Assembly (NCBI GenBank): GCA_021292165.1 | Contig: CM037876.1 | Span: 36,291,075 to 36,355,074, forward strand | Direction: 5' to 3' | Length of the DNA stretch: 64,000 bases | Source: Shinisaurus crocodilurus | Lineage: Eukaryota; Chordata; Lepidosauria; Squamata; Shinisauridae | In this document: piece by piece, positions 12,906 through 47,999 of the stretch | Position numbering within the stretch: the first letter of the stretch is position 1 | Layout: each line of letters begins with the position of its first letter | Translations under genes and position numbers: made by a program | Notes under the pieces: model-generated | What the model was told of the DNA's origin: nothing | The model's database searches: none | Seen by the model: the letters and a program-made list of their open reading frames with translations, nothing else

Positions 12906-12990
12906 TCATCATCAGGCGATCACTCGTGACCGAGTAAGATTGTCTTCCGGGATAAAAGGAGGAAATTGTCTTCCGGGATAAAAGGAGGAA
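12906..12990 (-). mobile_element. Terminal scrap of a Vingi/Ingi-like LINE, minus strand
   Basis: TCATCATCAGGCGATCACTC through GATTGTCTTCCGGGATAA is the reverse complement of the 3' end of the LINE at 30178-31642, including the start of its TGATGATG tail. This copy is cut back to ~55 bp. Its inner 26-bp unit (ATTGTCTTCCGGGATAAAAG...) is duplicated in tandem at 12939-12964 and 12965-12990. Confidence 0.8.
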
Positions 12991-14912: not shown

Positions 14913-14970
14913 TACATACCAACTAAAGAGGTGATAGCATGTAAAAGCAGTGTTTACTTTTTAATTTAAC
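14913..14970. repeat. Left arm of a 58-bp inverted repeat
   Basis: This 58-bp segment (TACATACCAACTAAAGAGGT ...) is the reverse complement of 18694-18751 with a single difference (57 of 58). Both outer ends read TA then CATACC inward, so the pair could be the terminal inverted repeats of a non-autonomous Tc1/mariner-like element about 0.9 kb long before the L1 inserted. The alternative is a local inverted duplication. Confidence 0.85.
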
Positions 14971-15304
14971 AGTATTTTAATTTTTTTAATGTGAAATACT
15001 TTTGAACCAAATACTAAGATAAAAGGAAGAAAAGAAACTGACAAATGGGTTTGAGTCCATGAACTTCTCATATTCACACACCCCATATAGATGATAAAAA
15101 ATACTATCATAGGATAGTTGTTATCATGGGCAATTGCACCTTTTTAAAGTCATCTGTTATACTCTTCATAGATATCAGGATGGAGTCAGAATCAGTGGTG
15201 AAAGCAGGCAGGATTGAAATGAATTAGTATAGAGTACCAGCAAAGTTTTTATATTCACATTAATAACTAAATATAGAGTAATATGAAGGAATCAGAAAAA
15301 AAAT

Positions 15305-16545: not shown

Positions 16546-17013
16546 GGGTTAAGTTTAAGATTTTACAGGATGCAAAAGAAAGAGGGGGGTTGGGTCTACC
16601 TGACCTGAAGTTATATTTTGCTGCTTGTTGTTTAGTATGGATCAAAGAATGGGTTTTGTTGAAAAATAGTCGATTACGGTATTAGATTTAGAGGGATATG
16701 ATTTGAGATTTGGATGGCATGGGTACATGTGGTATGATAAAGTTAAAGTGAATGTAGAATTTAATAATCACTGTGTTAGAAGTGCCATTTTGAAAATTTG
16801 GAATAAATATAAACCTAGGTTTTGTCAGAGAGTACCATTGTGGCTATCAGCACAAGAAGCCCATCATAGAAGAGAAATGTTAAGTAAAAATGTTAAGTAA
16901 ATGTTAAGTAAATGTTAAGTAAATGTTAAGTTGACATATCATGATTTGCTGAATTTTTCACAAGATGAATGTAAAATAAAATCAAGAGAATAACTGATAA
17001 AAGAAGGTCATAC

Positions 17014-17712
17014 ATGTCAATGGTTCTCCTATTTAAGATGGTAGAAAGGTTTAAAGTTGATAAAAGGTTGTATGATTTTGAACAGAGTGTATCTGACTTT
17101 GAAAGGGAATTATGTCTAAATGATGAACATCTTATTTCAAGAATGTATAAGCTTTTGTTGAAATTTGAAACTGAGGAAGAGCAAGTGAAGGAATGTATGA
17201 TAAAATGGGCTCAAAATTTTGGCTATAATATATTAATGACACAATGGGAAAATATGTGGTTAAAAGGTTTGAAATTTACTTTATGCTCTAGTCTTAAAGA
17301 GAATTTTTATAAGATGATGTATCGTTGGTACTTGTCGCCGGAGAAACTGGCTAGAATGTATAGCGGTGCATCAGATATATGTTGGAAATGTGAACAGGAA
17401 GGAACCTTTTATCATATATGGTGGACATGTAAGAAAGCTAAAAGATTTTGGGTTGAAATTCATTTATTAATGCAAAAGATTTTAAGGATTACTTTTCAAT
17501 TGAAACCAGAGGCTTTTCTATTGGGAATAATGGACAGTCAGCTAGAAGGAAGATATGGAACTTTATTTTTATACATGACAACGGCAGCGAGACTACTATA
17601 TGCACAGAAATGGAAAGGTCCAGCAGTGCCTACGATAGAAGAATGGTGGGTCAAGATGCTGGAGCTGGCAGAGATGGCCAAACTAACATCACTAATTAGA
17701 GAACAGACTTCC
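17014..17712 (+). pseudogene. L1 ORF2 C-terminal fragment, plus strand
   Basis: Open for about 230 codons. Motifs in order: KENFYKMMYRWYLSPEKLAR; CWKCEQEGTFYHIWWTCKKA, an L1 C-terminal cysteine motif with both Cys pairs kept; then FWVEIHLLMQKILRI. Translation matches the minus-strand fragment at 16192-16545 motif by motif, so they are related subfamilies. The open frame runs on to 17820 only because it reads into the LTR-like insert. The ATG at 17014 is internal; upstream L1 coding continues to 16540 with frameshifts. Confidence 0.9.
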
Positions 17713-18297
17713 ACTGGCCCCTCACCTGGGGCCGGGGAGAAGATTTGCGAGTGGGGGAGGAGAGAGGAGTCAGGTAACAGGTCAGGTTGGTCACAGGTAC
17801 TGAGCCAATGGCTCAACTAGGGCGGGGACACAGGAAAGGGCTTATTTAGGCACCTGGGTTGGCGGGAAGTGCGGGATTAGGCAGTATGGCTTAAGCTTAT
17901 GGTGATCATCCAGTGGCACCTTTCAAGGTGACTGACGTTTACCCAAGGCTGCCCTCGCTAATGCCCTGAGGCTTGCCAGGAGGGAGATTGGGACGTCTTT
18001 GGGGTTTTGCCTTTCTCGCCTACATTGGGTGCCTGGAGGCGTCAAAGTAAGGTGACGATGGTAAAGCCCTCCAGCTCCACATGGAGGGCAACTGGCTGGG
18101 GGCGGACCAACCCGCCTCCGGTGCGGTTAGGATGTATTCGCCCAAATATTGGTTTTTTCCCGGCCAATGGCCGGGCTAGGTTAGTACCGCACTTCGCCCT
18201 TCACAGATCTTCAATTCAATAAATGTGGCCCTGATTTGAAACCATATACTCTGTGTCTGACTCTTCTTTATCTCACCCATACACTCGCAAAGGACAA
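17713..18297 (+). mobile_element. Probable solo LTR inserted in L1 ORF2
   Basis: A GC-richer ~580-bp block interrupts ORF2 between the codons for REQTS and SVFIIEWKPL. It has LTR-like order: TTCAATTCAATAAATGTGGC (poly-A signal) followed by a T/C-rich ACTCTGTGTCTGACTCTTCT tail near the right end. A 10-bp inverted pair, TTTGCGAGTG (17744-17753) and CACTCGCAAA (18282-18291), lies just inside the ends. No internal coding region is present. I could not fix the borders or target duplication exactly, so a retroviral versus Ty3-type LTR cannot be told apart. Confidence 0.6.
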
Positions 18298-18693
18298 CAT
18301 CTGTGTTTATTATTGAGTGGAAACCTCTAATTGACTTTTTGCAGAGACTGGAAAATAATGATTTGTTTGTTTGTGGATTTATGGAATAATAAGTGAATTT
18401 GGGACAATGGGAAGAAAGAGATTTCTCATTTGGATTATCGAGTAAGAAAAATTATTGTTACCTGTATTTGCTGTAGAAGAAAATCGGAGGTCTATTTTGT
18501 TTTGTTAATTGTTATATGTTTGATATTATGTGTTTGTTTTATATAGAAATAAAAATTGGACGCCAAATATTTTTCCAACTTTGTATCGATATTTCCTCAT
18601 CAAATTCATTATCCCATAACAGTTTAAGAGAATCTTTATGCTCTTCTTCTTTTTGTAACATCGTATATAAAACCTTTGTTGTAAAAACTTAAT

Positions 18694-18751
18694 GTTAAAT
18701 TAAAAAGTAAACACTGCTTTTACATGCTATCACCTTTTTAGTTGGTATGTA
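18694..18751. repeat. Right arm of the 58-bp inverted repeat
   Basis: Reverse complement of 14913-14970 with one mismatch. It starts inside the right target duplication of the minus-strand L1 (18683-18696), meaning the L1 landed at the inner edge of this arm. Confidence 0.85.
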
Positions 18752-19699: not shown

Positions 19700-20640
19700 G
19701 AGGGTCCATTATCGGGCCTACTTGGTGGTGGCAATGGCGAGGAAGGCAAAGTACTTCTCCACCATCATTGCATCCTTGAAGTGTCATTCAGTGGAGGGTT
19801 TCATGTGGTGAGGGGCCTACTCCACGTGATCTGATGCAGGAACTCTCAAAAGCACATTGCGACAGGTTTGCAAAACACTTTGAGGATAACCTCGTTCATA
19901 TCCGGTCTGATAGGCAGGGCTAGCCCAAGACATTTGCTGCCTGAAATGGAGGCCATGATGGTGCCCACTCCCATTCCATGTACAAAAGCTGACCAGACTG
20001 GCAGTTGAATCTTACTTCTACACTGATGATGGGATAGCATCTTCCACTACAGCTGAGGGCAGCAGGCTAGCTTAGGGGGTGCAGGGGAGGTTGCACCCAT
20101 CACCTGAGGCAGCCACCTCAACTCTGCCTAATGGTAGGGCTGGCCCTGCTGATAGACACAATGGTTGGGGCAATCAGTCAGTGAATGTTTCCAGAGCACT
20201 ATCTGGTCTAGTTATGTGTGATGAATTTCAGTTGCTGTGTCCTGAGGGTGTAGGCAAGATTCTGGGAGGGGTATGACCTACCACCTGTTTGTTTGTCCCT
20301 TGCCCTCCATTGCGAATATCATCCATGAAGGAGGGATTGACTGGTTGGGTTTAGGAGGTGATTAATGCCTCGTTATGACAGAGGGCACCCCGGGCTGGCT
20401 AGAAGAAGGCAGTGGTGCAACTACTTCTTAAAAATCCCTCCCCACAACCTGCAGATGATGATAACTATTGGTCAGTTACAAATATGGCCTGTTTGGACAA
20501 AGCACTACAACATGTGGTAACTCCAGGGGCTCTTGGAGGAAATGCATTTTCTCTAGACCCATTTCAATTTGTTTTCATGCCTGGAAACTGTCCTGGTAAT
20601 CCTGATGGGTTTGGGACCCAGGTACCTTGAATTGAGCTCA
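19700..20640 (+). pseudogene. Old L2-type LINE reverse transcriptase remnant, plus strand
   Basis: Translation around 20412-20580 gives LLKNPSPQPADDDNYWSVTN and later LDPFQFVFMPG, corresponding to the LLKKP...NYRPVS...LDPFQSGFRPG blocks of L2-type reverse transcriptases. Upstream sequence from roughly 19700 has the right composition, but its frame is shattered. Nothing here can be functional; the 5' border is a guess. Confidence 0.6.
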
Positions 20641-20835
20641 GAACCCAGTGTTCCCAACTTTCTCCCAGTTAACATCCTGGCCACTATATTTTAAACTAAC
20701 TGAAGGTTCTGAACCATCTTCAAGAGCAGACCCAGACCCATTACAGTAGTCTAAACCATCCAGCCCACTGTCAAGGTACAGGAAAGGCTGATTATGGAGG
20801 TCCCCATGTGCTAAAATGAACCTGGGACATGATGC
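20641..20835 (-). mobile_element. Old L2-type LINE fragment, minus strand
   Basis: AACCATCTTCAAGAGCAGAC and CATTACAGTAGTCTAAACCA parallel ACCGTCTTCAAGGGTAACCC and CATTACAGTAGTCTAGGC in the minus-strand LINE at 29.7 kb. It is oriented opposite to the L2 fragment just before it. Confidence 0.55.
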
Positions 20836-21232
20836 TGCAGCACCCAAATTAACTCCCCTGGAGCTGCATGTGCCTGGAACCTTTCACATCATGCCATTAC
20901 TAGAACTGGATGACAATCTCCATCTGGAGATTGCCAGAGAAAATATCCATGATTATTTTGGAGGGGTCTCTCAGCAGTTTCTGACACTGTGGACTATCAC
21001 ATTCTAATACATTCTGTTCAAGGATTCCATTAAACATAAGAAGAGCCATGCTGGATCAGACCAAGGGTCCATCTAGTCCAGCATTCTGTTCACACAGTGA
21101 CCAACCAGCTGCCCACAGGATCCCACAAGCAGGACATGAGTGCAACAGCATCTTCCTGCCCATGTTCCCCAGCAACTGGAGAACTTAGGCATACTGCCTC
21201 TGATTGTGGAGGAAGCATATAACCAATCAGGA

Positions 21233-21493
21233 CTAGTAGCCATTGGTAACCTTATCCTCCATGAATTTGTCCACTCCACTTTTAAAGCCATCCAAATTGG
21301 TGGACATCTCTACATCTTGTGGAAGTGAATTCCATAGTTTAACTATATGCTGTGTGAAGAAGTACTTCCTTTTATCCGTCATGAATCTCCCACCAATCAG
21401 CTTCATGGGATGACCCTGGGTTCTAGTAGTATGAGAGAGGGAGAAAAATGTCTCTCTGTCCACTTTCTCCACACTATGCATAATTTTGTACAC
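21233..21493 (-). pseudogene. CR1 ORF2 C-terminal fragment
   Basis: Contains RETFFSLSHTTRTQGHPMKL, GGRFMTDKRKYFFTQHIVKL and WNSLPQDVEMSTNLDGFKSG, the canonical CR1 ORF2 tail (R-Y-FF-Q-R-V-x-LWNSLP). Upstream coding is out of frame. The family product is a reverse transcriptase/endonuclease; this piece lacks both active sites. Confidence 0.9.
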
Positions 21494-21935
21494 TTCTATC
21501 CTGTCTCCCCTTACTCACCTTTTTTCTAAGCTAAACAATCCCAGCTATGGAATCTTTCCTCATAGAGGAGTTGCTCCAGTCCCTTGATCTTTTAATTGCC
21601 CTTTTCTACAACTAACTACAGTTCTGGTGCAGTGATCAGAACTGTACACAGTATTCTAAGTGCGGTCACACACTATAGATTTGTATAAGGGCAGTATGAT
21701 CTTGGCAGATTTATTTTTAATTCCTTTCCTAATCATGCCTAACATGGGGTTTGCCTTTTTCACAGCAGCTGCACACTGGGTTGACATTTTCATTGAGCTG
21801 TCCACCACATCCCTAATTTCTGATCTCTTTCTTGGTCAGTCACCGCTAGCTCAGATCCCATCAGCTTATACTTGAAGTTGGGGTTGTTGTTTTTTTGCCC
21901 CAACATGCATTACTTTACACTTGCTTATATTGAAC

Positions 21936-21946
21936 CACATTTGCCA
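21936..21946. repeat. 11-bp target duplication, left copy
   Basis: CACATTTGCCA at 21936-21946 recurs exactly at 22813-22823. The bases are part of the CR1, whose uninterrupted relatives run straight on from here into CCCATTCTCCCAGTTTGGAG. Confidence 0.85.
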
Positions 21947-22812
21947 TTTTCTCAACTGACGCCATAACATTCTGTACTTTATGGAAGCTCACAGATCTGT
22001 GTCAGTCTGGGTTTTTTTTGGGGGGGGGCTGTCTTTAAATTCTTTTTCCTTAAGAAGTTCTATAACTTTTGAGTACCTAAGGAATCATCCAAGTATGTAG
22101 AAACCCCACCCTATTTTTGTGTGGCCCAGTTGTGCTCTCAAACTGATAGGCACTGAGACACTCATATTTGTTATTAGAAGGAATTATTTAATTCTGAAGT
22201 GCTTGTAACTGGAAATGTTACATTTATAAGAAGAAATGAAAACAATTTTACATTGTAGTATTTGTTATTTTAGGGCTGTATAGCTATCTGCAAAACATTT
22301 GGTACTGACAGTACTGCATTCTGTAATCAGTCTTGCAGGACCTGAAAATCAGGAGAAATCTTAAAAGTAACAGCAATAAGTACATATGATAGTACTGAGA
22401 AAGTACTTGGATTTGTAAGAAAATTAGCAGCATGCCTTCTTCTTGCACAATTTTTCCTTACAAGCACATGTTCCTAGCTCTGTAAGCACTTCAACATCTT
22501 AACATATGTTCCATCCTAAACAATAAATGGTTAAATTAATTTTATGTAATAATAATACAAGAGTCATTTGACAGATACTTTTAATAAAGTAAGGTGTTAA
22601 AATCTCTTTCTGTACAGATCTATATTATCCCTGCATTACCCACTTGGAAAACTTTAAAATACAGATAATTCATTTTAATGAATGGGATTATGTAAGCACA
22701 TGTGTTTTGGGACTTAATATTTTACTAGAATGTAACACAGTTATGTTCTATGTTTTTAGCAGATTGAATTACATTAAATTCAATCTTTTTATGAAGGATT
22801 GTACAGATTGTA
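21947..22812 (-). repeat. Left arm of a ~0.86-kb, ~99% inverted duplication, inserted in CR1
   Basis: From 21948 to 22808 this is the reverse complement of 25044-25908. I could count only about five substitutions and a few 1-2 base length differences (e.g. a homopolymer near 22013-22030) by eye. It is bounded by an 11-bp target duplication and begins with TTTT, a possible short antisense A-tail, so it looks like a retroposed copy of minus-strand sense. The apparent 60-codon shared open frame (22644 on) has no recognisable domain. The alternative is a template-switching duplication. Confidence 0.88.
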
Positions 22813-23122
22813 CACATTTGCCACATGATGCCCATTCTCCCAGTTTGGAGAGATCCCTTTGGAACTCCTCACAATCCTTTTTTTGTTTTCACCACCCAAA
22901 ATAATTTGGTGTCATCAGCAAACTTGGCCACTTCACTGCTCACTCCTGATTCCAGATCATTTATAAATAAGTTGAAACGCATTAGTCCCAATACAGATTC
23001 CTGTGGGACCCCACTGTTTACATCCCTCCATTGGGAGAATTTACCATTTATTCCTACCCCCTGCTTCCTGTTCTTTAACCATAAGAGGACCTCCCCTCTT
23101 CTTCCGGGACGGCCAAGTTTGC

Positions 23123-23724
23123 TCAGGAGTCTTTGGTGAGGGTCTTTCTCAAAGCCTTTTGGAAGTCCAAGTAAACAATGTCTACCAGATCACCCCTGTC
23201 CACATGTTTATTGGCACTCTCAAACAACTCTAAAAGGTTAGTGAAATAGGGCTTACCTTTGCAGAAGCCATGTTGATTCTTTCTCAGCAAGGCTTGTCCT
23301 TCTATATGCTTACTGATTTTATCTTTAATAACGCTTTCAACCAATTTACCCAGAACAGACATTAAGCTAACTGGCCTGTAATTTCCCACAGCCTCCCTGG
23401 ATCCTTTTTTTTTTTTTTTAATGGTCTTACATTGGCCATTCTCCAGTCCTCTGATACAGAGGGTGATCTTAGGGACATATTACATATTTTTGTTAGAAGA
23501 TCAGCAATTTCATATCTGAGTTCTTTAAGAACTCTAGGATGGATACCACCTGGGTCTGGTGATTTATTGACTCTCAATTTGTCAATAAGGTTGAGAATTT
23601 CATCTTTTGTCACCACTATTTGCCTCAATTCCTCAGACTCCTCTCCTGAAAACATCAATTCAGGCATTGGTCCTGTGTTTTCTGCAGTGAAGACAGATGA
23701 AAATAATTCATTCAGTTTCTCCAC
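23123..23724 (-). pseudogene. CR1 ORF2 reverse transcriptase fragment
   Basis: Two overlapping minus frames carry VNKSPDPGGIHPRVLKEL, EDWRMANVRPLKKKKKDPG, NYRPVSLMSVLGKLVES, KNQHGFCKGKPYFTNLLEL and IVYLDFQKA, i.e. reverse transcriptase blocks up to the motif A region. A frameshift at the K-run (T-run in the plus strand, ~23405) divides them. The catalytic Asp of motif A is visible (YLDF), but motif C (the FADD-type block) is not. Confidence 0.92.
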
Positions 23725-24262
23725 AATCCCCTTATCCTCCTTTAGTGCCCCCTTAACTCCATTATTGTCCAGTGGTCCCGCTGCCTCAGTTCGGAAGGGA
23801 AATCCCCCCTCAGTGTGGGATGGGTTTCACAAATTGCCCTGAGCATGTGGAATGTACATCTCATTGGGATGTACAAATTAATCTTATCACCTGCCTCTAG
23901 GGAGATATGTAAAATATATTTGTTTCCACAGTCATTTCAGGGGGCACCAAAATGAAGGCTGCTGTGATTTTATGCTCCAATGGTTGTTTGAGTTTATGGC
24001 TGTTATAATTTGTATTGTTATGGCTCTGTTTTTACTGTGGCCTTTTGGTGGTGACCTTTCAGTGCCATGTTCTATTATATGTTGATTTTCTGTTGTAAGC
24101 ATCCTTCAGCTTAATGGAGCAAGGTGAAGTACTAACCGTTAAAATAAATTTTTCACAGGAAAGCTGTGCCACTAGAAGTAATCCCATGTCATTCTGACTA
24201 TAGATAGCCTTTTCAATATACGCAATACAAGTAGAAGGTAGCTAATTATTAACTCTCAGCTT

Positions 24263-24343
24263 CAAACCTATGCACATGTACCTCAGAGTAAGTGCCATTG
24301 AACTCAATGGAATTTACTTCTGATAGACATGCATAGGATAACA
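24263..24343. mobile_element. GCAATCCTA-type palindromic element
   Basis: Includes CATGTACCTCAGAGTAAGTG, CATTGAACTCAATGGAATTT and GACATGCATAGGATAACACT, matching the internal part and right end of the family; the left end is decayed. Confidence 0.7.
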
Positions 24344-24372
24344 CTGTTAATATCGCATGAATGGTTCAAATG

Positions 24373-24729
24373 TGTCGAAAACTCTGCTGCCGCCACACGT
24401 AGCAAAGATAGGAGTTGTGTGCAAGCTCGACGAATAACGAGGAGAAGTGAGCTTATCAGTAGAAACTTTTACTGAGGTTTTTCCACGCATAGACTCATTA
24501 CAGCTATACAATCAGTGCAAGGCTCCCATGCACAGCACAAAAAGCAGCATAGAGATAAAGACTAGTGGGGAGAGAATATTACAGCATATAACTCCTCCCC
24601 TCTCATCACTCTGTTTATGACCTTGGGCACACTGCCCATCTTTAACAAGTTACACTCCCAAATAGAACTTCTGTTCACAGGTGCTCTGCTGTAGTCCTTT
24701 CTGCTTCAAGGACACATTACACTCTGACA
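24373..24729 (-). mobile_element. Solo LTR, 357 bp, with 5-bp target duplication
   Basis: Begins TGTCGAAAACTCTGC and ends CACTCTGACA, thus TG...CA, and is flanked by AAATG at 24368-24372 and 24730-24734. A 5-bp duplication fits Ty3-type or retroviral integrases. On the minus strand CAGTAAAAGTTTCTACTG and then a T/C-rich segment could be the poly-A signal region and R/U5, so minus orientation is preferred. No internal region remains, so it arose by LTR-LTR recombination. Confidence 0.75.
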
Positions 24730-25043
24730 AAATGGATACAATCTAACTAAATATACAATCTGGATTATTTGCAATTATTTTATATTGTGACAATAATGTT
24801 CTGTGTTCTTATTTCAGTGCTATTTTATGGCTAATGAACTGGGAGCTTCATGGCAGGGGATCACTCTGCTGCCTTAGGAAACACCAAAGTGAACAAGCAT
24901 ACAGTAATTGAATAATGTGGCAGAACATCAAGAGGATACAGTTAAAATTGAATAGGCAAATCTCACTCAGATATTTGGTTTTACAAAATCTTTTGTTGCT
25001 ATGCTTTAGCTCTAGTGAGACCTTTTCTATATTTTATGCATAT

Positions 25044-25908
25044 ATCTGTACAATCCTTCATAAAAAGATTGAATTTAATGTAATTCAATCTGCCAAAAAC
25101 ATAGAACATAACTGTGTTACATTCTAGTAAAATATTAAGTCCCAAAACACATGTGCTTACATAATCCCATTCATTAAAATGAATTATCTGTATTTTAAAG
25201 TTTTCCAAGTGGGTAATGCAGGGATAATATAGATCATGTACAGAAAGAGATTTTAACACCATACTTTATTAAAAGTATCTGTCAAATGACTCTTGTATTA
25301 TTATTACATAAAATTAATTTAACCATTTATTGTTTAGGATGGAACATATGTTAAGATGTTGAAGTGCTTACAGAGCTAGGAACATGTGCTTGTAAGGAAA
25401 AATTGTGCAAGAAGAAGGCATGCTGCTAATTTTCTTACAAATCCAAGTACTTTCTCAGTACTATCATATGTACTTATTGCTGTTACTTTTAAGATTTCTC
25501 CTGATTTTCAGGTCCTGCAAGACTGATTACAGAATGCAGTACTGTCAGTACCAAATGTTTTGCAGATAGCTATACAGCCCTAAGATAACAAATACTACAA
25601 TGTAAAATTGTTTTCATTTCTTCTTATAAATGTAACATTTCCAGTTACAAGCACTTCAGAATTAAATAATTCCTTCTAATAACAAATATGAGTGTCTCAG
25701 TGCCTATCAGTTTGAGAGCACAACTGGGCCACACAAAAATAGGGTGGGGTTTCTACATACTTGGATGATTCCTTAGGTACTCAAAAGTTATAGAACTTCT
25801 TAAGGAAAAAGAATTTAAAGACAACCCCCCCCCCAAAAAAAAACCCCAGCCTGACACAGATCTGTGAGCTTCCATAAAGTACAGAATGTTATGGCGTCAG
25901 TTGAGAAA
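25044..25908 (+). repeat. Right arm of the ~0.86-kb inverted duplication
   Basis: Near-identical reverse complement of 21948-22808. No target duplication is visible around this copy (left flank TTTTATGCATAT, right flank AGAGAGGGAAAG), so it is more likely the donor. It contains no gene I recognise; both arms share AT-rich sequence and a C/A homopolymer zone (25827-25848). Confidence 0.88.
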
Positions 25909-27215
25909 GAGAGGGAAAGGGTACTGGAAGTGGTGGGGAAGGAAGAGGAAATTAGCCTGCTCAAGCCCCTGACCATTTATAGTAGGTAGGTAGCCTGGAA
26001 GGAAGAATCAGGGGTGTGTGAATGTGTGTTCTGAGGTTTAAAATCACCTTCTGTGTACTATACAGGGATGTTCCAGGAGTAAAGCCAGGGGAAAGGGGCA
26101 CAGTTTCCTTCCCCACTCTCCAGACTAGAGATGTAAAGTTTCCAGAAATGTTGAAGCCATGGGGAACACACACCCCCCCCGGAGGTTTCCCATTGTCCCA
26201 CTCCCTGGAAAAAAGGACATTTTAGTACAAATTGAAAAAGATGCAATACTTATTTTTTAAGCACTCTTTACAGATCTAAAGTTACTTTAGGAACATAAAA
26301 TTTATTATACATAACTTGGTTTGCTAATTAAATTATCATTAAAATTAAAAACATTTAAAAGTAAATTCCATAATTTTGTAATTATTGTCTGAATAAATGA
26401 TACTTTTAAATTTAATATAACAAATATGATAATTTTATGAGCAAACCAAGTTATACACAATACATTTAAGGTTCCTATTTTATCTCTGACCAGAGGGAAC
26501 TTCAGCAAGTAGTCCCTGAAACATCAGACTATAATCCTAGAAGCCAAAAGATCTGGAAGCAGAGGAAGATTTGCATCTGACTTCTTTTCCTGTTTGTGAG
26601 GAATTGGTTGGGATGGGGTTTAGGGGAATCTAGTCTGAAGGGAAAGCTATTGAGAGCTTATTTAGCTGGGGAAGACTCTCTTACCTATTAGGAATGTTAA
26701 TCAAGCATATTAATTTAAGAACCTTTAAGCAATCTCAACCTATTGTTTGAGCAGTGACATTTTTATTCCCTTTTGTAAATAATTCCCATTAATGAACATC
26801 TTAATTTCTGTTCATTTTGAAAGGTTGCTTTCAATGGTCATGTAAATCCCATGTCTATACCACAGGAACCAGGCTGATGAGTGTCTTTTAGGTATGGAGA
26901 GTTAAAGGATTTATAGCTGAGGCAGCGTTACCTAATAGTGAGCCTCAACGTTTTTCTTGGTTTTTTAAAACATAGGTGGGATAACCCTCGTGTTCCACTG
27001 CATGTGGTGGCAGTGGCGAACTAACCTATGGAATTTTTCTCACATGTGAATTTTAGAACTACATTCATTGACTGCTACAGCACCGAACCAGAACAGGCCC
27101 AGAAACACAGGACTGTGTAGAACAAAACCCAAACTGTCAAGAATGCACATTTTACTATGATATGGTGACTCTAAATTGAGCATGACTTGAAATCTTTATC
27201 AGTCAAAAATACATT
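25909..27215. other. Unassigned, with one AT-rich fold-back
   Basis: No gene was seen. At 26307-26330 (ATTATACATAACTTGGTTTGC) and 26440-26462 (GAGCAAACCAAGTTATACAC) there is an inverted pair around AT-rich DNA, which could be an old palindromic MITE. Confidence 0.4.
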
Positions 27216-27216
27216 A

Positions 27217-27648
27217 GGAGCGCAGTCCTATGGGGATGCCCGTAACCCTCCGAACTCAGAGGATTATGGGTATCCTATGCAGGGAGGGAGGAGTGTAGAG
27301 GCAAAGGTAACCTCTGTGCTCCTACTGCTCTGCAAAACTGCTAAAAGGCCAATTTCGGCTGTCTAACTGCAGCGCTTTGGAGAGGGAGGGAAGGAGGCTG
27401 AGGCACCAGCAGGATACCGAGTATCTTGGCAGCGCTGGTCTCCTCCCATTCCTGCTGCCTGGAACGCCCACTAAATCCATTCTCTGAAGTTGCAGAGAAG
27501 CAGCTGGCACAGTTCTTTCTGTGCCAGCTGCGATGGGGGGAGGGCGCAACAAGCTGGACTCCCAGCTCCGAGGTTGGAGCAATTTTCCAACATCGGAGCT
27601 GGGACTCCAAAAAACCCTATGACCCCCTATGTCTAGGATTGCTCTGTA
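27217..27648. repeat. GC-richer repeat with CAGTCCTA/AGGATTGC ends
   Basis: Opens GAGCGCAGTCCTATGGGGAT and closes CTATGTCTAGGATTGCTCTG, which are roughly inverted. The interior is distinctly GC-richer than its surroundings and includes the small hairpin CTGGCACAGTTC...GTGCCAGCTG near 27510-27530. It may be a larger relative of the GCAATCCTA elements. Open frames on both strands are a composition effect. Confidence 0.4.
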
Positions 27649-27649
27649 G

Positions 27650-29128
27650 GTCCATCATTTAAGAAATTACTACGCTGGGAATCTTACAAAGAAAATTAAA
27701 TCCCATGGCTTCAAAATTTCCAGAAATTTTATATCTATAGTCTCAGGTAAAATTCTTCTGTTATGTAGTTTATAGAAATAATTTTGGAGGCAGTAAAGGC
27801 TGGGTAGCAATATACAAACACCTTGGCTTAAAGATTTTATTCTCCATATTATCCCAAATTGTTCAATTTTTCCATTTTTTTGTGGGGGTGGGGGAGGAAA
27901 GAAACTGGGGGGGGGAGAGGAAAAATACATCCCCCTCCCAAATTTTTCTGGTTCTTTTCAGCAAACAAGAGCTGTGTAGTGCTACAGAAACACAGGAAAC
28001 TGCCTTAAACCAGGTCAGATTACATGTCTACATGTCCTATTATTGTCTACTCTGACTGAGAGAGGTTCTCCAGGATGTCAGGTGGAGGACTATCCTGTGT
28101 TTTTTTTTTTTTTTTAGCATAGCAGGAACAGGCCTCAGAGGGGTGGAGGGGAAAAAAAGGTTTCCAATCCATGAAGTCTGAAGTACAAGGTGCCTGTTCC
28201 AGGGTGGCTGTGGTGCAAGGTCTCTCACCACCTGAGGAGAGAGAGAAGGTGTGCTGCCACTACCCCTTTCCCCCGGCACGGTGCTGCAGGAAGAAGTGGC
28301 TGCAGGGCTCTCATGGGGAGTTGCGCAGGTCTCGCGAGACCTTGCAGGCAGAGACAGTGTTAGGGACGGCCCACTAGGTCCCCAAATCTTTCATTTGGAG
28401 CCCCGAATCTCTGGGAGGTCATCTTCCCCACCACCCTGCTGCCCATGGGCACTTGCTTAAATAAAGGTACGGGGGCCCTGATGATCTCTGTTGCATCTAA
28501 TCTCCTTGGATTAGCTGGCTTTTGCCCACATGTGCTTTACCTCCTGCTGCTTCCCCCCTGAATTTTTCTGCCTGAGTTTTTTTCTAAAATAAAATGCCCT
28601 CTCGCTGTGGCAAATGCCATGGCAGGAGAGTGGCTGGTGGGGTTTTCCAGAGCACCTGCTGGAGGCTGTGGTGATGGGCCCTCCTGGCCAGCGGAGTGGG
28701 CTAATTCACCGCTTCTCCCTCTCCGCCACCTGATGTGGGAGCCACACCCTGCTTCATGGATGAGCCTGCCCTCGCTGGAAGAGCCCTGGATAGGAGCACT
28801 CCTCTTAGGGCTGGGGATACAGTACAGCATTTTGTTGCAGTCCCAGTTGCACATCTTAAACTGGGCCAGAAATGGAAAACCTATTGCTGATCCAAACCCC
28901 CAAATTAATTCCAATTAGTTTTAGTGACCACTGACCACAACTTTGTCTGGTATTTTATCATAGGTTTACATACCTGTTCACCTTAAAGAGTGCTATATGA
29001 ACTAAAATCAATGTCTTGAATCCTTCATTTGATCTCTCCTCTCCTCTTCCTGGCATTTGAATCCCTTTTTGCCCAAGGATGCCAATCACGGAATCCCCCC
29101 AATAGCATATAATAGCTTCAGGAGAGGG
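27650..29128. other. No recognised feature
   Basis: Holds T-runs at 28100-28118 and G/T tracts at 27880-27920. The region 28170-28920 is GC-richer with longer open frames on both strands, but none has a recognisable motif or codon signature I could defend. Confidence 0.4.
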
Positions 29129-30137: not shown

Positions 30138-30177
30138 ATAATGTACAACTAATGGCTTGAGCAAATAGCAGTCAACT
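30138..30177. repeat. 40-bp target duplication, left copy
   Basis: The 40 bases starting ATAATGTACAACTAATGGCT recur exactly at 31643-31682 on either side of the Vingi-like LINE. This is unusually long for a target-site duplication. Confidence 0.95.
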
Positions 30178-31556: not shown

Positions 31557-31601
31557 ATTTTTATCCTGGAAGACAATCTTACTCGGTCACGAGTGATCGC
31601 C

Positions 31602-31644
<43 letters not shown>

Positions 31645-31735
31645 AATGTACAACTAATGGCTTGAGCAAATAGCAGTCAACTGCACGTATACAAGGGTAT
31701 TACAGATGAGCCCAAATCATATTAAAGTTACAGAC

Positions 31736-35890: not shown

Positions 35891-35891
35891 C

Positions 35892-36025
35892 CAGTGTTCT
35901 CCAACCTTGGGTCCCCAGATGTTTTTGGCCTACAACTCCCAGCATGCCCCAGCCAGCAGCTGGCTGGGGCATGCTGGGAGTTGTAGGCCTAAAAACATCT
36001 GGGGACCCAGGGTTGGAGGACACTG
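35892..36025. mobile_element. Palindromic hAT-like MITE, 134 bp
   Basis: Ends CAGTGTTCTCCAACCTTGGG and GGGTTGGAGGACACTG; a near-perfect palindrome around GCCCCAGCCAGCAGCTGGCT. Flanks CTCTAACC (35884-35891) and CTCTAATC (36026-36033) match 7 of 8. Confidence 0.92.
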
Positions 36026-36029: not shown

Positions 36030-36708
36030 AATCAGACTGGCTGTCTCTAATGGCACCACAATGGCTATCTCTATTCAGTTCATTTCTAAATTAATTGGCA
36101 TTTCTTCACATTTTACTTCTAGGCTTGGCAAGGCCTAGTTTCAATACTAGGACAGAATATAATTTCTTCTGTCTTTATTATTTAATATATTTTATATAAA
36201 AGGCAGTTAATATTTGTGATGTTGTAGAAGCCACTGGGGTGCCCTCTCACTTCCAGCACTCCATTATCCTGCTGGCTCGTGCTTCATCTGCAGCACCGCA
36301 ACAAGCATTGGGTGTACAGGGAGGTCAAGTGCTCCCCCTTTGTGCCACTTGGCTCATCCAACATGCCTAAGTTAGACATAAAATTGGCATTCAGTGATGA
36401 CACTAATAAAACAAAACCCAAAGAGGTATGATCAAGGACCCCAAAAAGTCACTGTGGAAAACAGAGAAGCATTTATGAAAAGCAAGGCAATTAAGGTAGC
36501 AACATTTAACATTTCTGAGAAAGTTGCACAACAGATGGCTAATCCATAGCCTAGTTGAATTAGTGCACTTGGATTTCAGCCCATTTAGTCCCATGGGATG
36601 TAGATAAAGTTTACTGGAAGGGGGGAGGGAGAAGGCAAACATGCCCAAAGTTTAAACTAGAACAAGAAAAAAGCCCTTTCTTGAATAAACCAGCATTCTC
36701 TTTATACA
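36030..36708. other. No recognised feature
   Basis: No gene or repeat family was recognised. Confidence 0.4.
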
Positions 36709-36710
36709 GT

Positions 36711-37480
36711 GGCTGGGTTTACACAACATGATAACCCACACTCAGTGTTAAGTATGGGTTGATTGTGGGTTGTCATTGACCTGTGGGTTGTTGTTAAACC
36801 ATGGGTTGTTGTGTTGTGTGAACCCAGCTGTGCTAACCAGCGATGGTTTGTTAACCATGAACAACCCACAAAGAGAACCCATGATTTGTTGCTGGGTTGT
36901 GAACTGTGGGTTGTTTGTGGTTAACAAACCATGGTGAGTGACTGTGTTCACATGACACGACAAACCATTGTGGGCAGCTAGCCATGATGGGTTGTTGCGT
37001 CATCCAAACCCAGGCCAGTTTCTGCATGGTGGCTTAATTTTCAGGAACAAGCCACGCTGACAATCCATGGCTTGTTCTAGAGGGTTATCATACCCACGAT
37101 AGGTTGTCATGGAGTCCAAACCCGGGAGAGCAATTTTATCATGGGTTGCTGGCATTGGATACAGAGCTGTTCGGCAAGAGTGGCAAAAACCACTTAGCAA
37201 GGTAATCGTGTTACTTACGGTAAGTTGCGCAAAACTCTCCTTTTACTTCCCTGCCTTTAAATTTACGTAAGAATTTACAACAGTTTAGAACCACCACCAC
37301 CCGCAGTAACTGCAGTAGTAACTGCTCTGAAAGGGAGACACAAAAGGAGGGAGAGAACCAATCTCTCCCCTTTTCAGACTTGCTGGAGACTTGGAGAAGT
37401 GTTGAAAGCAAGCAGGTTACAAGTGACAGTTCAACACTTAAAAGTGAGAGGATTACCTTGCTAAGTGGGAGATATTATTC
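36711..37480. mobile_element. Composite AACCATGGTT-rich MITE, long form
   Basis: 36711-36829 is a small palindrome (GGCTGGGTTTACACAACATG ... GTGTGAACCCAGC). 36830-37020 repeats GGTTTGTTAACCATGAACAA and GGGTTGTGAACTGTGGGTTG in both orientations. Beyond it, ACCACTTAGCAAGGTAATC (37188-37207) is inverted at GATTACCTTGCTAAGTGG (37450-37468), so a longer inner inverted pair extends the structure. It may be one large element or two adjacent ones. Confidence 0.6.
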
Positions 37481-37481
37481 T

Positions 37482-38435
37482 CCCCCCCCCTTTTTTTTTG
37501 GTGCACCTACATCTCCTGCTTCCCCCTTTGTTTCTTCTCCCTTAGTATCAGTTTTCCACCAGTCCTTAGCAAGTGTGCACAAATTTGCCTATATGCAGTC
37601 GCTCTTTGTCAATTTCCTTGATTTTTACCTACTGCACTTCGCTCCCTTTGGCAGCTGTAACTTACAGGGACATGGAAAAGACAAGAATACACATATCGGA
37701 CAGCCATAAGTGCGCAGTTGTTCACCTGCACTGTGTAGCTTATTTGCAGGGTGGCTTACCGTGACATGTAAATGGGGTCAATGAAACCAAGGCAGTCCAG
37801 TGAAAAAGGAAGAGCATCTGTACAGCCTGACCAACTTTCACAGCTAACCTTCAATCTACAAGAAAAAGGCAGCATGCATTCCAGACTCTGTTTATCACTC
37901 TGTTTTAGAGAACATAAATGACTTGCTGTTCTTTAAATTAATGGAACATTAATAAATGTGAATAAAACAAATTATTCAACTTCAAACATAAGTCATATTC
38001 CAAAGCAGTCCTGAAACCATTGGGACTACTCCAGTGTAAGTTATTTGAGGATTGTGGTAACAAAGGTTATTCCATTTCCCATGCAGGTCAGCCTATCCAT
38101 TTTCTAAATTTGTCTACATGTAGATATGTCTACTGGTCTTATCATGTTTTCTGAACAGGTTCTTAATTTCTGCAGTGTATTTTTAAAAAGTAGAGTGCAA
38201 GATGGGCACATGCTGGCTGGGGAATGCTGAGAGTTGTAAGACTTTTTTCTGTCTAAACATGCATAGGATTGCACCCTAAACTGGCTTAACTATTATTGTT
38301 GGCTATGCAGTTTCTAATCATTAGTAGTCTTATGGATCCTTAGCATACCACTGTGGATTTTTTTGTCTAGGCAGTGAAAATGCAACAACAGTTCATTGGG
38401 TAAAGCTCTTGAACCATTTGTCCATATGTGTGTGA
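37482..38435. other. Mostly unassigned
   Basis: C/T homopolymers lie at 37480-37500. A GCAATCCTA-type right end (ACATGCATAGGATTGCACCC) lies at 38258-38278. Nothing else was recognised. Confidence 0.4.
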
Positions 38436-38439
38436 GAGG

Positions 38440-38586
38440 CAGGGCTTTTTTTTCTGGTGGAACTCACCGGAACTGAGTTCCAGCACCTTTTCTTCTATTA
38501 ATTACATTACAATTTAATCGCCATCTACTCCCGAGGAAATGTAATCCAAGAGTTCCGGTACCCTTTTCTCCAGAAAAAAAGCACTG
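38440..38586. mobile_element. hAT-like MITE, 147 bp, GGGCTTTTTTT ends
   Basis: Opens CAGGGCTTTTTTTTCTGGTG and closes CCAGAAAAAAAGCACTG; the interior carries inverted GAACTCACCGGAACTGAG sequence. Flanks GTGAGAGG (38432-38439) and GTGAGAGT (38587-38594) match 7 of 8, as for hAT. Confidence 0.88.
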
Positions 38587-38589
38587 GTG

Positions 38590-39584
38590 AGAGTGAATAT
38601 TACTTCTTAACCAATAAATAATTGGTACATACTAAAATAAAGGTTATCAAATTGTATGGGCAGTATCCAAACAAACACTGCCACTAACATGAATTATGTT
38701 GCACTAGAGTAAGCAACTTTTAGCACAATGCCACTAATGTTTGCTGGCATTATGGGTTTTCTGGGGGAATCTGTTGCACCAGCAAACACTATAGGTGCTA
38801 TGGTAGAGGTCGCTTCCACTAGCAAAAAAAATTCCATTAGATTTAGATGCTACTCTATGTAAGTATGTATCTATGTGTGTATGCAAGGATGCTTGAGCTT
38901 CATTTACGTATAAATGAGTTTTACTGGCTCTGGAGCAAATTCAGTTTCCAAACTTTCCCAGTAATCAGAGTGCCTTTGGCTACATATGTACTAATTTTCA
39001 GGGGGTGGGGGTGGGGCGTTGGCCTGAAATCTAGCAAAATTAACAATTTTGATATCTTGCGAGTGAGGTTGCTCCATTCACATGCTTTATCTTAGATTGG
39101 GGAGACAGGATTTCTGTGGAACAATAAGCTTGTTTGAATTAGTTCAAACTATGTACTGTCAGGGTCAGAGTGTTTATGAAAATTATGTCTAAAAAGGACT
39201 TCCAAGCTTGAGGTGCCTTCTGTAGCTCAAGAGGCAGAACAGACAGAGCCCAGACTGCCAACTATTCCAGAGAGATGAGCTTCAGTTTGACCCTCTTGAG
39301 AAAGCAAGGCAATTAGAAATGTATAAAAGGAACCATTTAGACATGGTTCTCTGGGACACAAGCTGACCTACTGTGTAGGTGTCAAGTGAAAGTAAAAGCT
39401 GGAAGAGTTTTCTAAAGGCTTTTGTTTCTTCTGGATAAAAGCTAAAGACCTTTTGAGAATCAGCTTTTGAATTAGGCTTCCTAGAATGAGACTGAGTGCA
39501 ATGGGACATTAAAAAAACCCACTTGGAATTGGTTTCATAAGTATTAAAAGAAATAATAATTGGGTGCAACTGGTAAAAGGTTTC
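38590..39584. other. No recognised feature
   Basis: No gene or assignable repeat was seen; a G-rich GGGGGTGGGGGTGGGG tract lies at 39001-39016. Confidence 0.4.
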
Positions 39585-39585
39585 T

Positions 39586-40725
39586 GAGTTTATGCTGCAA
39601 AAATCAAATTCACTTTATTCTCTGTTTTAAATGTACAACTTTTTCTTTTGTTTGGTCTTCAAGTCCCTCGAGAATTGTCCCCATAGGGTAGAATTATACC
39701 CTATGTACCCATTACAGTCACCACCCAAATCTTTAAATTGTGGCACGTGTCATGCCCCTTCTGCACACTTAGAGCAAATGTCATGCTTGAAACACTAAAT
39801 AAATGTGTTTAGACTCAGGGTGCAAGATATTTTGCACATTTCAAAGACACAGAATTTCACTCAACACAACAAGTAATCAGTTTACAATGCTACATATTAG
39901 AAACTCACTCCTGGGTCTGATTAGATTGCTTTTGACATCCCTTCCATAACAGTTGATCTAAAATTTCACTTCCTACTAAGCAACTATGATTTGTAGTCAA
40001 AAAGTTTTGCCCAGAGGCAAATAGACAGCATGTTCAGGCCGACTGCATATGCTTTTATCCGGGGTTCAATTACTGCCAATCTTCTACCCCTATACCCTCA
40101 AGCTGAAACAAACTTAGCTTACTTTATGCTGGGAATGCAGTATGATAATGCTGTAGATTATGGCTGCAATCCTACACACGCTTACTTCAAAGTATGTCCC
40201 ATTGAACAAAATAGGGTTCACTACTGAATAAACATGGAAAGGGCAGTAATTTCTCCTCCAGCCAGAAGCGTGTAGAATGCTAGATTCTCCAATTATTTAG
40301 CAATATATACAGGAATGAACTCCACTGAAAGGCGCACATTTCGTAAATGAAGCAACACTAACGTGAACCATTCGAAAGAACATAACTGCACATAAAGTGC
40401 CATTTTAACACAAATTACTTGGTTTTCTAGTTGTAGATTTGCTACCAGCAATGTGCTATTTTGCACTTGATGAAGAAGAAGAATCGGTAAACTAATATAA
40501 TAATTTCATAATATTAGAATATTGTGTGCTTTTACTAAGTATTGATGTACATAGTTTTAAAGAATCTATCCTGTGAAAATTGTATATATTTAGAAATAAA
40601 GAAGATTATCTTGTGGAGTTGCAAAGATAAGCATTAAGGAACTTGGACCACAGTCTGGTGTTTCAGATTGTAGTTCACTATTTTCAGTGAAGAGTTTATG
40701 CTGCAAAAATCAAATTCACTTTATT
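39586..40725. repeat. 1.07-kb unidentified insert between 34-bp direct repeats
   Basis: The 34 bases starting GAGTTTATGCTGCAAAAATC occur exactly at 39586-39619 and 40692-40725. That is the pattern of a long target duplication around an insertion of 1072 bp (39620-40691). The insert has no clear poly-A, inverted ends or coding frame; it holds a GCAATCCTA-type element at about 40160-40245. A partial tandem duplication followed by decay is less likely, since the flanks agree only in these 34 bases. Confidence 0.75.
40160..40245. mobile_element. GCAATCCTA-type palindromic element
   Basis: GGCTGCAATCCTACACACGC, TATGTCCCATTGAACAAAAT and GAATAAACATGGAAAGGGCA follow the family order; the right end is decayed. 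Confidence 0.65.
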
Positions 40726-40790
40726 TGGAGTTAATTTGCCCTGTAAACTATTAACAATTCTAAAATTACATGATTAAGTTCAAGTAAAAG

Positions 40791-41015
40791 GAACATAGGA
40801 AGCTGCCTTATGCTGTCAGACCACTGATCCAGCTTGGTTATCAGGTATCCAGTATCAGAATATACCAGTTGCTGGAGAACATGAGTGGGAAGGGGCTGTT
40901 GCACTCATGTCCTGCTTGTGGACTTCACATAGGTAGCTGGTTGGCCACTGTGTAAACAGAATGCTGGACAAGACAGGCATTTGGTCTGATCCAGTATGAC
41001 TGTTCTTATGTTCTA
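40791..41015 (+). mobile_element. SINE tail joined to a CR1 3' end
   Basis: GGAACATAGGAAGCTGCCTT (40791) is the antisense SINE 3' end also seen at 49995-50018. It is followed by CR1 3' UTR phrases CTCATGTCCTGCTTGTGGAC, GGTAGCTGGTTGGCCACTGT and GATCCAGTATGACTGTTCTT in plus orientation. Whether this is one chimeric element or two adjacent insertions is unclear. Confidence 0.6.
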
Positions 41016-41179
41016 GGTCAGTACTGTCAATACTGACTGGCAGTGGCTCTCCAGGGGTAGACGATGTAGTATTTACCCACAAGGCATGTACCAGTTTCAG
41101 AGGAGTGGTTTTCTTCAGGACCAGAGCAGGGGAGGAAAGGGCTAAATCCCACTCCACACCTGCGGCAATACCAATAATT

Positions 41180-41204
41180 CACACACACACACACACACAC
41201 ACAC
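41180..41204. repeat. (CA)n microsatellite
   Basis: About 12 uninterrupted CA units. Confidence 0.95.
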
Positions 41205-41345
41205 CCAAGCTGGTGCCACTTGCATTCTTTAAAACCTGCATATTAAATGCAAACATGAATTAACATCACATCTAGTTTGGTCCTGAGCTACATCCGTTCC
41301 CTGCACAATCCTTTGAAAATGAAACACAGCCAGGAGCTCCTTCAA

Positions 41346-41530
41346 GCCTATGAAATAGGGGTGGACAACTTCCAGGGTTCTGGGTTCCAATTTCCTCTCC
41401 CATAGAACCCATCAGGGACCGCCACACTCCTGCTGCCACTGTCCTGACACCAAAACTTGTGGGCAGTGGGGACTGCACAAAAGCCCATGGGACTACATGC
41501 AGCCCATGGGCCACGTGTTGCCTACTCCGC
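41346..41530. mobile_element. Probable hAT-like MITE
   Basis: GGGGTGGACAACTTCCAGGG at the left and GGGCCACGTGTTGCCTACTC at the right are roughly inverted ends of the GTGGGCAACTTGTGGCCC type also seen at 62720. No target duplication was read. Confidence 0.5.
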
Positions 41531-41531
41531 T

Positions 41532-42013
41532 ATAAAACAACTGTTATACTTTATAGCCTCCTTGAGTCGATGCTCTCAATAGGATTGTTAGTAAACACTG
41601 GCAAATTCAGAACTTTCAAGAATTGATCAATTGGAAAAGACTTATTCTTCATCAGTCTACCTAACATAATGGGATTTCACACACCTGGATATCAAGTATT
41701 TTTAATATCAGGTTCTGAAACATTTTGAGCTAAGATACGTAATCCTCATCAAGGGACAGTAAGAATGGTGGAAGGAAGATAAATAGTATCCTCAAGACCT
41801 CAACACTTTGGTTTGGGAGTAACCTGGTCAGATTTGTGGAGCTAGACTTATTAAAAGCAGTTGTTGTTTATACAGTTGTTTCAGCCACAACCGAGTTGAA
41901 AACTTCCTTATACATCCTCATCACTCAGATGGTCAGACCTTCCAGAATGGTGAACAGGCACATTTTCCAGGACCAGGAGCGATCAGGATTGGAGAAGTAG
42001 TGAGTAGAAGAGA
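41532..42013. other. No recognised feature
   Basis: No gene or repeat family was recognised. Confidence 0.4.
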
Positions 42014-42015
42014 AT

Positions 42016-42575
42016 GGCTGGGTTCAGGCACCATGATAACCCACACTCAAGGGTTAAGTATTATTATTATTGTTGTTGTTGTATTTGTATTTATTTATAA
42101 CCTGCCTTTCCCCCAGTATTGGGACTCAAGGCGGCTTTACAACATTAAAATGTGTACAGTTAAAACTTATAAACAGAGAAATACAAAAGTTAAAAATATA
42201 ATTAAATCAGCAATAGTATTAAAATTATATAAAATATCAAAGCTAAAAACAACAATAACTATAGGAATAGTGCAAATCCATCGCTTTCTCATAGGTCCAA
42301 ATTTATTCCTCGAAGGCCTGCCGGAACAAGAAAGTTTTTGCCTGCCTTCAAAAACATACCAATGAGGGTGCCAATCTAGCCTCCCTGGGAAGGGAATTCC
42401 AGAGTGTTGGAGCAACCACCGAGAAGGCCCTCTGCCGAGTTCCTGCCAGGCGTGCCTTAGATGGTGGCGGAACTAAGAGAAGGGCCTCTTAGTATGGGTT
42501 GAACTTGAATGTGGGTTGTCATTGAACTGTGGGTTGTTGTTGAAACATGGGTTATTGTGTTGTCTGAACCCAGCC
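42016..42575. mobile_element. TTCAGACAACA-type MITE split by an L2-type LINE tail
   Basis: Starts GGCTGGGTTCAGGCACCATG and ends TTGTGTTGTCTGAACCCAGC. The natural interior (GGGTTAAGTATGGGTTG) is broken at TTAAGTA by about 0.43 kb of LINE tail (42061-42490), after which GTATGGGTTGAACTTGAATG resumes. A possible duplication TTAAGTAT/CTTAGTAT marks the junction. Confidence 0.75.
42061..42490 (-). mobile_element. L2-type LINE 3' end, minus strand, nested in a MITE
   Basis: TTTATTTATAACCTGCCTTT, then GGACTCAAGGCGGCTTTACA, later GAATTCCAGAGTGTTGGAGC and GAGAAGGCCCTCTGCCGAGT resemble antisense 3' coding/untranslated sequence of the L2-type LINEs here (compare CACAGAAAAGGCCCTCTTCC near 29390). The family call is moderate. 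Confidence 0.55.
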
Positions 42576-47228: not shown

Positions 47229-47229
47229 A

Positions 47230-47775
47230 CAGACAAGGCCACTCGGGAGGGCGGAGAGATTCAGATTCTATTTACTGGGAGGAATAGGCAAGCAATGGTG
47301 GGAAGACTTCACAAAAGGTTGTGTGTTAATCTTGGTACAGATCTGTTTCACAAACGAAATGAAATTTTACACACTCGATCATTTTAATGCATTTTACAAG
47401 ATGAAGGGTCAAAGTACTGGCTACATTACATCGGTTAAAAAATTAGAGGCTTCTTCTCCAGGAGCCTTTCAGAAACCTTGCTCTAGGTGTGTGGAGGCAG
47501 GGCGCAACGAAGGCAAAACTAAACTTGGCAGAACTGCAGGCTCCTTCAAGGTTGCTGTGTAGATTACACACAGCTGGCTCACAAGGGAAAGAAAGAAAAG
47601 AAAGGTTGCTGACAAGTGAAGCGGCAAAATCGTGTTGGGAGGGGAGGAGAATGCCAAGGGAGGATGGAGGCTACAGCACCGCAGTCTGCTGCTTGGCAGA
47701 GTTTGGAAAATGAGATCGCTCGTGAGGAGCAGCGCGTTTTGGGGGCACTCTTGCCGAGCGACTCTGTAGCCCTTT
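47230..47775. other. No recognised feature
   Basis: Open frames on both strands lack recognisable motifs. This could include further 5' sequence of the Myb/SANT pseudogene, but I could not show it. Confidence 0.4.
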
Positions 47776-47777
47776 TC

Positions 47778-47995: not shown

Positions 47996-47999
47996 CTGA

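What the first reader, a model, noticed from the sequence alone, without database searches (positions are those of the whole stretch)
21936..25908. Very young 0.86-kb inverted duplication, left copy inside a CR1 with an 11-bp target duplication
21948-22808 and 25044-25908 are reverse complements with only a handful of differences, far younger than the surrounding repeats. The left copy is flanked by CACATTTGCCA on both sides and starts with TTTT, as a LINE-made retrocopy would; the right copy has no such flanks and may be the donor. Retroposition of an RNA from a site 2.2 kb away is odd, so template switching during repair is a real alternative. The arms could also form a large cruciform or a long double-stranded RNA.
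Basis: partly seen in the sequence, partly recalled or inferred. Interest (0 to 1): 0.75.

Follow-up and report, generated by a model that had tools for sequence, protein, structure and literature searches.

The report
Break-repair copy of nearby DNA
A stretch of about 860 bases was recently copied, flipped, into an old mobile-element fossil 2.2 kb away, most likely while the cell was mending broken DNA; it is a clear example of a known kind of mutation rather than a new mobile element.

Summary
The inverted duplication is real: 21948-22808 and 25044-25908 are reverse complements, with 6 substitutions in 861 aligned bases plus 4 gap columns. The genome search (2.19 Gb) found no other long copy. 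The right arm is the donor: its end at 25908 cuts through an old dispersed repeat that runs on past it. The left arm is the insert, in a CR1-like LINE.

The retrocopy argument is weakened. All 11 LINE relatives fetched carry TTTTGA at the insertion site (8 read exactly GCCA|TTTTGATGCCC). So the "TTTT" is best read as host sequence overlapping the donor's TTT (3-bp microhomology), not an A-tail. The 11-bp repeat is then not a clean target duplication: the right side reads CACATTTGCCA-CA-TGATGCCC, found once in the genome, against 1,427 exact copies with TTTT. That junction parses as two 9-bp slips on 3-bp matches (GAT, CCA).

Best explanation: microhomology-mediated template switching during break repair, copying an inverted donor 2.2 kb away. 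Rivals: a DNA patch captured at a staggered break with a true 11-bp duplication, and a tailless L1 retrocopy (TTTT/G is L1-like). Five other clustered changes in the same host copy keep the first rival alive. It is a new example of a known kind.

The parts
21251..23405 (-). Host: degenerate CR1-like LINE (reverse-transcriptase region) on the minus strand, interrupted by the insert; it may run further on both sides
Evidence: The two flanks align end to end (at least 1,270 of 1,278 bases) with 8 of 11 fetched relatives, 3 shorter; RVT_1 match E=1.2e-6 for 23126-23398 (28.9 bits, just under the 29.6 cutoff); 39 long matches at 87-91% to 22824-23424 (40 of 5,743 candidates scored).
21936..21946 (+). 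Left copy of CACATTTGCCA, host LINE sequence
   Evidence: same or closely similar letters in the fetched relatives
21947..21950 (+). TTTT, most likely of the host LINE; its last three T overlap the donor's TTT (3-bp microhomology at the left junction)
   Evidence: 11 of 11 relatives carry TTTTGA here: 8 GCCATTTTGATG, 2 GCCATTTTGAAG, 1 GACATTTTGATG; donor reads CTCTCTTTCTCAACTG
21948..22808 (-). Inserted arm: inverted copy of 25044-25908
22809..22825 (+). Junction patch TGTA|CACATTTGCCA|CA: TGTACA repeats the sequence 9 bp upstream; 11 bp repeat the left flank; CA(T) repeats the left flank after a second slip on CCA
   Evidence: the CA variant occurs once in the genome
25044..25908 (+). Donor arm
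   Evidence: no flanking repeat found
25666..26340 (+). Old dispersed repeat in the donor that continues past the arm end at 25908, showing that the right arm is the original
   Evidence: single matches to L003 (25666-25930) and L008 (25849-26125) cross 25908; same-orientation pieces in the right order beyond it in L004 and L006, so 4 of 6 family loci (L005 and L007: only chance-level matches beyond the edge, E 0.05 or worse); a loose local alignment to L003 reaches 26340

Best explanation
A local templated insertion made during DNA break repair. A break opened inside the LINE's CCATTTT/GATG. The left end (...CCATTTT) annealed through TTT to DNA 2.2 kb downstream and copied about 860 bases of the opposite strand, giving an inverted copy. 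Synthesis ended at GAT, slipped back 9 bp on GAT to re-copy TGTACA, switched to the left flank for CACATTTGCCA, slipped again 9 bp on CCA to add CAT, and was joined to the right end (GATGCCC). Shown: the arms, which arm is the donor, the junction letters, and the site in paralogous LINE copies. Inferred: the site at this locus before insertion, the break, the order of switches, and the pathway (synthesis-dependent annealing, MMBIR or polymerase-theta-type joining).
For: No third long copy was found, and the two lie 2.2 kb apart. The donor edge cuts through an old repeat, so the copied block follows no element boundary. The longest stop-free frame in the block is 74 aa, and no Rfam match fell inside it at E 0.1. 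Site in relatives: TTTTGA in 11 of 11; in 10 of 11 the LINE frame reads EWASKWQ(M/L), or GWASKWQM in one, straight through TTTT, whereas CA shifts it by one base; 1,427 exact genome copies with TTTT. Left junction: TTT microhomology, no extra base needed. Right junction: CA occurs once and is 1 of 18 copies with one base fewer (14 TTT, 2 ATT, 1 GTT, 1 CAT), as the CCA slip predicts; TGTACA repeats 9 bp upstream (a random 6-mer does so within 60 nt with P about 0.013). The 17-nt patch shares 11 nt with nearby sequence; 8 of 5,000 shuffles did as well or better.
Against: The slip parse was made after seeing the letters and rests on short pieces. The reconstructed site TTTT/G resembles an L1 endonuclease target. 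The host copy has other clustered changes: against the majority of 11 relatives it differs at 108 of 1,201 columns, with 5 places besides the junction that have 3 or more differences within 4 columns, so the CA could be an older, unrelated change (roughly 2% by position). The other four local pairs in the sample lack a flanking repeat of 6 bp or more, so such a repeat is not general in local copies here. No orthologous empty site or population data were available.
Confidence: 0.74

Rival explanations
1. A DNA (or cDNA) patch captured by end joining into a staggered break with an 11-nt overhang; the host copy already carried CACATGATG, so CACATTTGCCA is a true target duplication and one T is untemplated.
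For: Captured mitochondrial DNA in primates shows target duplications of 1-11 nt in 17 of 71 events (PMC2567098, section 8). The 11-bp repeat is exact on both sides. The host copy carries 5 other clustered changes, so an older TTTT-to-CAT change is possible.
Against: It needs that change exactly at the insertion site beforehand: no other copy of this CA variant with these flanks, against 1,427 with TTTT. None of the 39 long relatives matches the CA (all begin at query base 3). The first T is then coincidentally the relatives' letter.
Confidence: 0.13
2. Tailless LINE (L1) retrocopy: an RNA from 25044 to 25908 with 3' end GAGAAA primed on TTTT at an L1-like nick (TTTT/GATG), giving a 15-bp target duplication CACATTTGCCATTTT.
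For: The reconstructed nick TTTT/G, equal to TC/AAAA on the other strand, is L1-like. Tailless retropseudogenes lack A-tails and use sites complementary to the last 2-18 nt of the RNA (PMC5322556, passages). A weak CATAAA hexamer ends 30 nt before the donor end (25873-25878). An L1-like ORF lies at 16975-17817 (recognised from memory).
Against: In target-primed insertion the right copy is the parental strand (established mechanism, recalled) and should read CACATTTGCCATTTTGATG; it reads CACATTTGCCACATGATG. The donor lies 2.2 kb away, whereas random landing that close in 2.19 Gb has odds near 2 in a million (arithmetic; the pair was noticed because both arms are in one window, so this overstates the case). 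The block follows no element boundary.
Confidence: 0.1
3. Assembly artefact: one copy placed twice.
For: No reads could be examined.
Against: The arms differ at 6 bases and 4 gap columns, the host is interrupted precisely, and the junction carries patch sequence. The place lies inside a 321-Mb assembled sequence.
Confidence: 0.02

Closest known systems
Templated sequence insertion (TSIP) class 2, human (PMC5110952; abstract and passages seen)
   Same: Copy of a genomic segment inserted at a break; microhomology and added bases; no poly(A)
   Different: Human cases come from distant loci and are thought RNA-derived, and lack target duplications; this donor is 2.2 kb away and inverted, and there is an 11-bp repeat
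Microhomology-mediated template switching / MMBIR (PMC2621351 search listing; PMC7954356 passages; PMC11724301 abstract and outline)
   Same: Inverted nearby template, switches on short microhomology
   Different: Short-range hominid switches have median 12 and maximum 128 nt (PMC7954356 passage), and yeast local foldback insertions are mostly 5-34 bp (PMC11724301 abstract); this tract is about 860
Tailless L1 retropseudogenes (PMC5322556; passages)
   Same: No A-tail; short complementarity at the insertion site; L1-like TTTT
   Different: No known RNA source; right copy altered; donor adjacent
Bov-B/Sauria SINE insertions of squamates (PMC13295347; abstract and passages)
   Same: Short direct repeats
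   Different: No Tn-TA signature, no terminal microsatellite

Membership tests
Class 1 TSIP / LINE retrocopy | Non-templated A-tail (10-40 A) | tested here: not met
   At most 4 A, of which 3 are in the donor and all fit host LINE sequence
Class 1 TSIP / LINE retrocopy | L1-like target TTTT/A or TT/AAAA | tested here: inconclusive
   TTTT/G if the relatives' site is ancestral; CCA/CATG if not
Class 1 TSIP / LINE retrocopy | Clean target-site duplication | tested here: inconclusive
   11 bp exact, but the relatives' adjoining TTTT is CA(T) on the right
Class 1 TSIP / LINE retrocopy | Poly(A) signal 10-30 nt before the end | tested here: inconclusive
   Of six hexamers sought in the last 60 nt only CATAAA is present, ending 30 nt before 25908; no AATAAA
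Bov-B type insertion | TTT about 10 nt upstream of a duplication starting with A (LINE) or T (SINE), at a TA step | tested here: not met
   Read by eye against PMC13295347: the base before the repeat is G or C, not T, and no TTT lies about 10 nt upstream, in either orientation or with the 15-bp reading
Templated insertion by template switching | Identifiable single-copy donor | tested here: met
   one donor locus for the full length; its last 240 bp or so also belong to an old repeat
Templated insertion by template switching | Microhomology at switch points | tested here: met
   TTT, GAT and CCA; short, parsed after the fact, and TTT as host-donor overlap depends on the relatives' site being ancestral
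Templated insertion by template switching | Event seen against an empty ancestral site in the same lineage | not testable with these tools
   No related genome is held; only paralogous LINE copies were used
Dispersed repeat family | Many full copies | tested here: not met
   2 long copies

The most novel reading that the evidence does not exclude
The patch was copied from a nascent non-coding RNA of the same locus (local RNA-templated break repair, or a tailless LINE copy acting in cis), which would explain both the nearness of the donor and the priming of AAA on TTTT.
Probability: 0.07. Interest if true: 0.6.

Novelty: new member of a known kind. Interest (0 to 1): 0.28.

Why it matters
The host is a repeat with over a thousand copies of the same site, so the likely pre-insertion sequence can be read without a sister species. 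That turns an apparent LINE signature (TTTT plus an 11-bp duplication) into junction microhomology plus patch DNA, a caution for annotating retrocopies from flanks alone. The fresh 0.86-kb inverted pair could in principle form a hairpin RNA; nothing here tests that.

Tried and rejected
Retrocopy with A-tail: rejected. Repeat family: rejected. Coding or structured-RNA unit: longest stop-free frame 74 aa; Rfam over 20000-28000 gave one match, MIR8139 at 27560-27606, far below its cutoff and outside the arms. A local-duplication survey of 264 kb (window plus one 200-kb block; pairs of 28 bp or more, 93% or more, under 30 kb apart) listed 17 low-copy pairs after 62 multi-copy pairs were dropped: 7 tandem-like (238 bp apart or less), 2 LTR-like, 3 more than 16 kb apart, and 5 at 0.6-3.7 kb, the finding included. 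None of the other 4 has a flanking repeat of 6 bp or more (one has a 5-bp one). Their genome-wide copy number was asked for two of them and not answered. The sample is too small for a rate. Age: 4 substitutions in about 840 bases suggest a few million years at rates recalled from memory; not calibrated. The wider search with 25640-26140 never ran, so on six held loci stands in for it.

My first flank join used wrong edges and was replaced. In one search the 11-bp-repeat join does not restore the LINE frame from upstream; the relatives do read through with TTTT. Papers: those named with passages or sections were seen in those parts only; also seen but not used in the argument: PMC8355091 (outline and passages), PMC2912911 (abstract and passages).

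Full report
The duplication. The arms 21948-22808 and 25044-25908 are reverse complements, differing by 6 substitutions in 861 aligned bases and 4 gap columns; 4 of the 6 substitutions lie outside a T/G tract at 22010-22032. The 39 long relatives of the host LINE's right part are 87-91% identical to it (40 of 5,743 candidates scored), so the insertion looks far younger than its host. A search of the window's own 2.19-Gb genome listed 40 matches, the 40 scored of 103 candidates: two long copies, both here, and 38 partial matches at 67-87% identity.

Which arm is the original. The partial matches lie within donor positions 610 to 865. Six of these loci were examined against the extended donor. 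In L003 and L008 a single match crosses the arm end at 25908; in L004 and L006 same-orientation pieces lie beyond it in the right order (4 of 6 loci). L005 and L007 gave only chance-level matches beyond the edge (E 0.05 or worse). So the right arm sits in an uninterrupted old repeat, and the arm end is an arbitrary cut through it. The left arm interrupts a minus-strand LINE reverse-transcriptase region (RVT_1 E=1.2e-6, just under Pfam's cutoff); the two flanks together align nearly end to end with 8 of 11 fetched relatives.

The pre-insertion site. Because the LINE has many relatives, the site before insertion can be inferred. All 11 fetched relatives carry TTTTGA there; 8 read exactly GCCA|TTTTGATGCCC. 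In 10 of 11 the LINE frame runs WASKWQ(M/L) through the TTTT; L038 did not match that motif. The exact 20-mer CATTTGCCATTTTGATGCCC occurs 1,427 times in the genome. The window's right flank, CATTTGCCACATGATGCCC, occurs once: here. With two free bases the one-shorter site occurs 18 times: 14 TTT, 2 ATT, 1 GTT and this one CAT. If the site was ordinary, two things follow. First, the TTTT after the left repeat is host sequence; its last three T coincide with the donor's TTT, a 3-bp microhomology with no extra base and no A-tail. Second, the right-hand 11-bp repeat is followed by letters that are neither the ordinary host site nor donor, so it is not a plain target-site duplication.

A control against this. 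The host copy differs from the majority of its 11 relatives at 108 of 1,201 columns, 45 of them gaps, and has 5 places besides the junction with 3 or more differences within 4 columns. The junction change has the same form, so an older change at this spot is possible; that it should fall exactly here by chance is roughly 2%.

The right junction. From the donor end it reads GATTGTACAGAT|TGTA|CACATTTGCCA|CA|TGATGCCC. TGTACA repeats the bases 9 bp upstream, beginning after a GAT that occurs at both places. CACATTTGCCA repeats the left flank. CCA-CAT repeats the left flank's CCA-CAT, again 9 bp back. Two slips of the same size on 3-bp matches are what a polymerase that falls off and re-anneals would leave. 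By shuffling, 8 of 5,000 patches share 11 or more bases with the surroundings. The parse was made after the fact and its pieces are short.

Mechanism. I favour break repair by template switching, with a local inverted donor and a patched right end (0.74). The closest described classes are class 2 templated insertions (PMC5110952) and microhomology-mediated template switching. A patch captured at a staggered break with an 11-nt overhang is documented for mitochondrial DNA (17 of 71 primate events with 1-11 nt duplications, PMC2567098), but needs the older host change (0.13). A tailless L1 retrocopy (0.1) is favoured by TTTT/G and by RNA ending in AAA (PMC5322556), but does not give the altered right copy and needs a landing 2.2 kb from its source. 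Bov-B is not supported by its published signature (PMC13295347).

Setting. In 264 kb I found four further low-copy, near-identical local pairs of 34 to 128 bp (39586/40692, 30138/31643, 14913/18690, and one in the 200-kb block), none with a flanking repeat of 6 bp or more. Local copying may thus not be rare here; this event is the longest of the five and the only one whose empty site I worked out.

Limits. No related species, reads or expression data were available. The ancestral site rests on paralogous LINE copies. Genome counts of repeats are lower bounds by the tool's own statement.

Noticed in passing
14913-14974 and 18690-18751: 62-bp inverted near-identical pair (97%), 3.7 kb apart, low-copy in the 264-kb sample; another possible local templated copy.
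   Followed up: partly
39586-39619 and 40692-40725: 34-bp identical direct pair 1.07 kb apart, low-copy in the 264-kb sample.
   Followed up: partly
30138-30177 and 31643-31682: 40-bp identical direct pair; the second copy abuts a (GAT)n run whose other side (31559-31610) matches 12906-12957 inverted, possibly a chain of copied pieces.
   Followed up: no
L009-L028 joined: 177419-177546 and 178183-178309: 128-bp inverted pair, 97.7% identical, 637 bp apart.
   Followed up: partly
L009-L028 joined: 36233-42450 and 46678-51913: Two likely young LTR-type elements, judged only by direct terminal pairs of 99.9% and 99.5% identity; located only.
   Followed up: no
window 2491-2604, 35891-36025, 46238-46374: Foldback-type repeat family (ACTCCCAGCATGCCCCAGC...) in several copies.
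   Followed up: no
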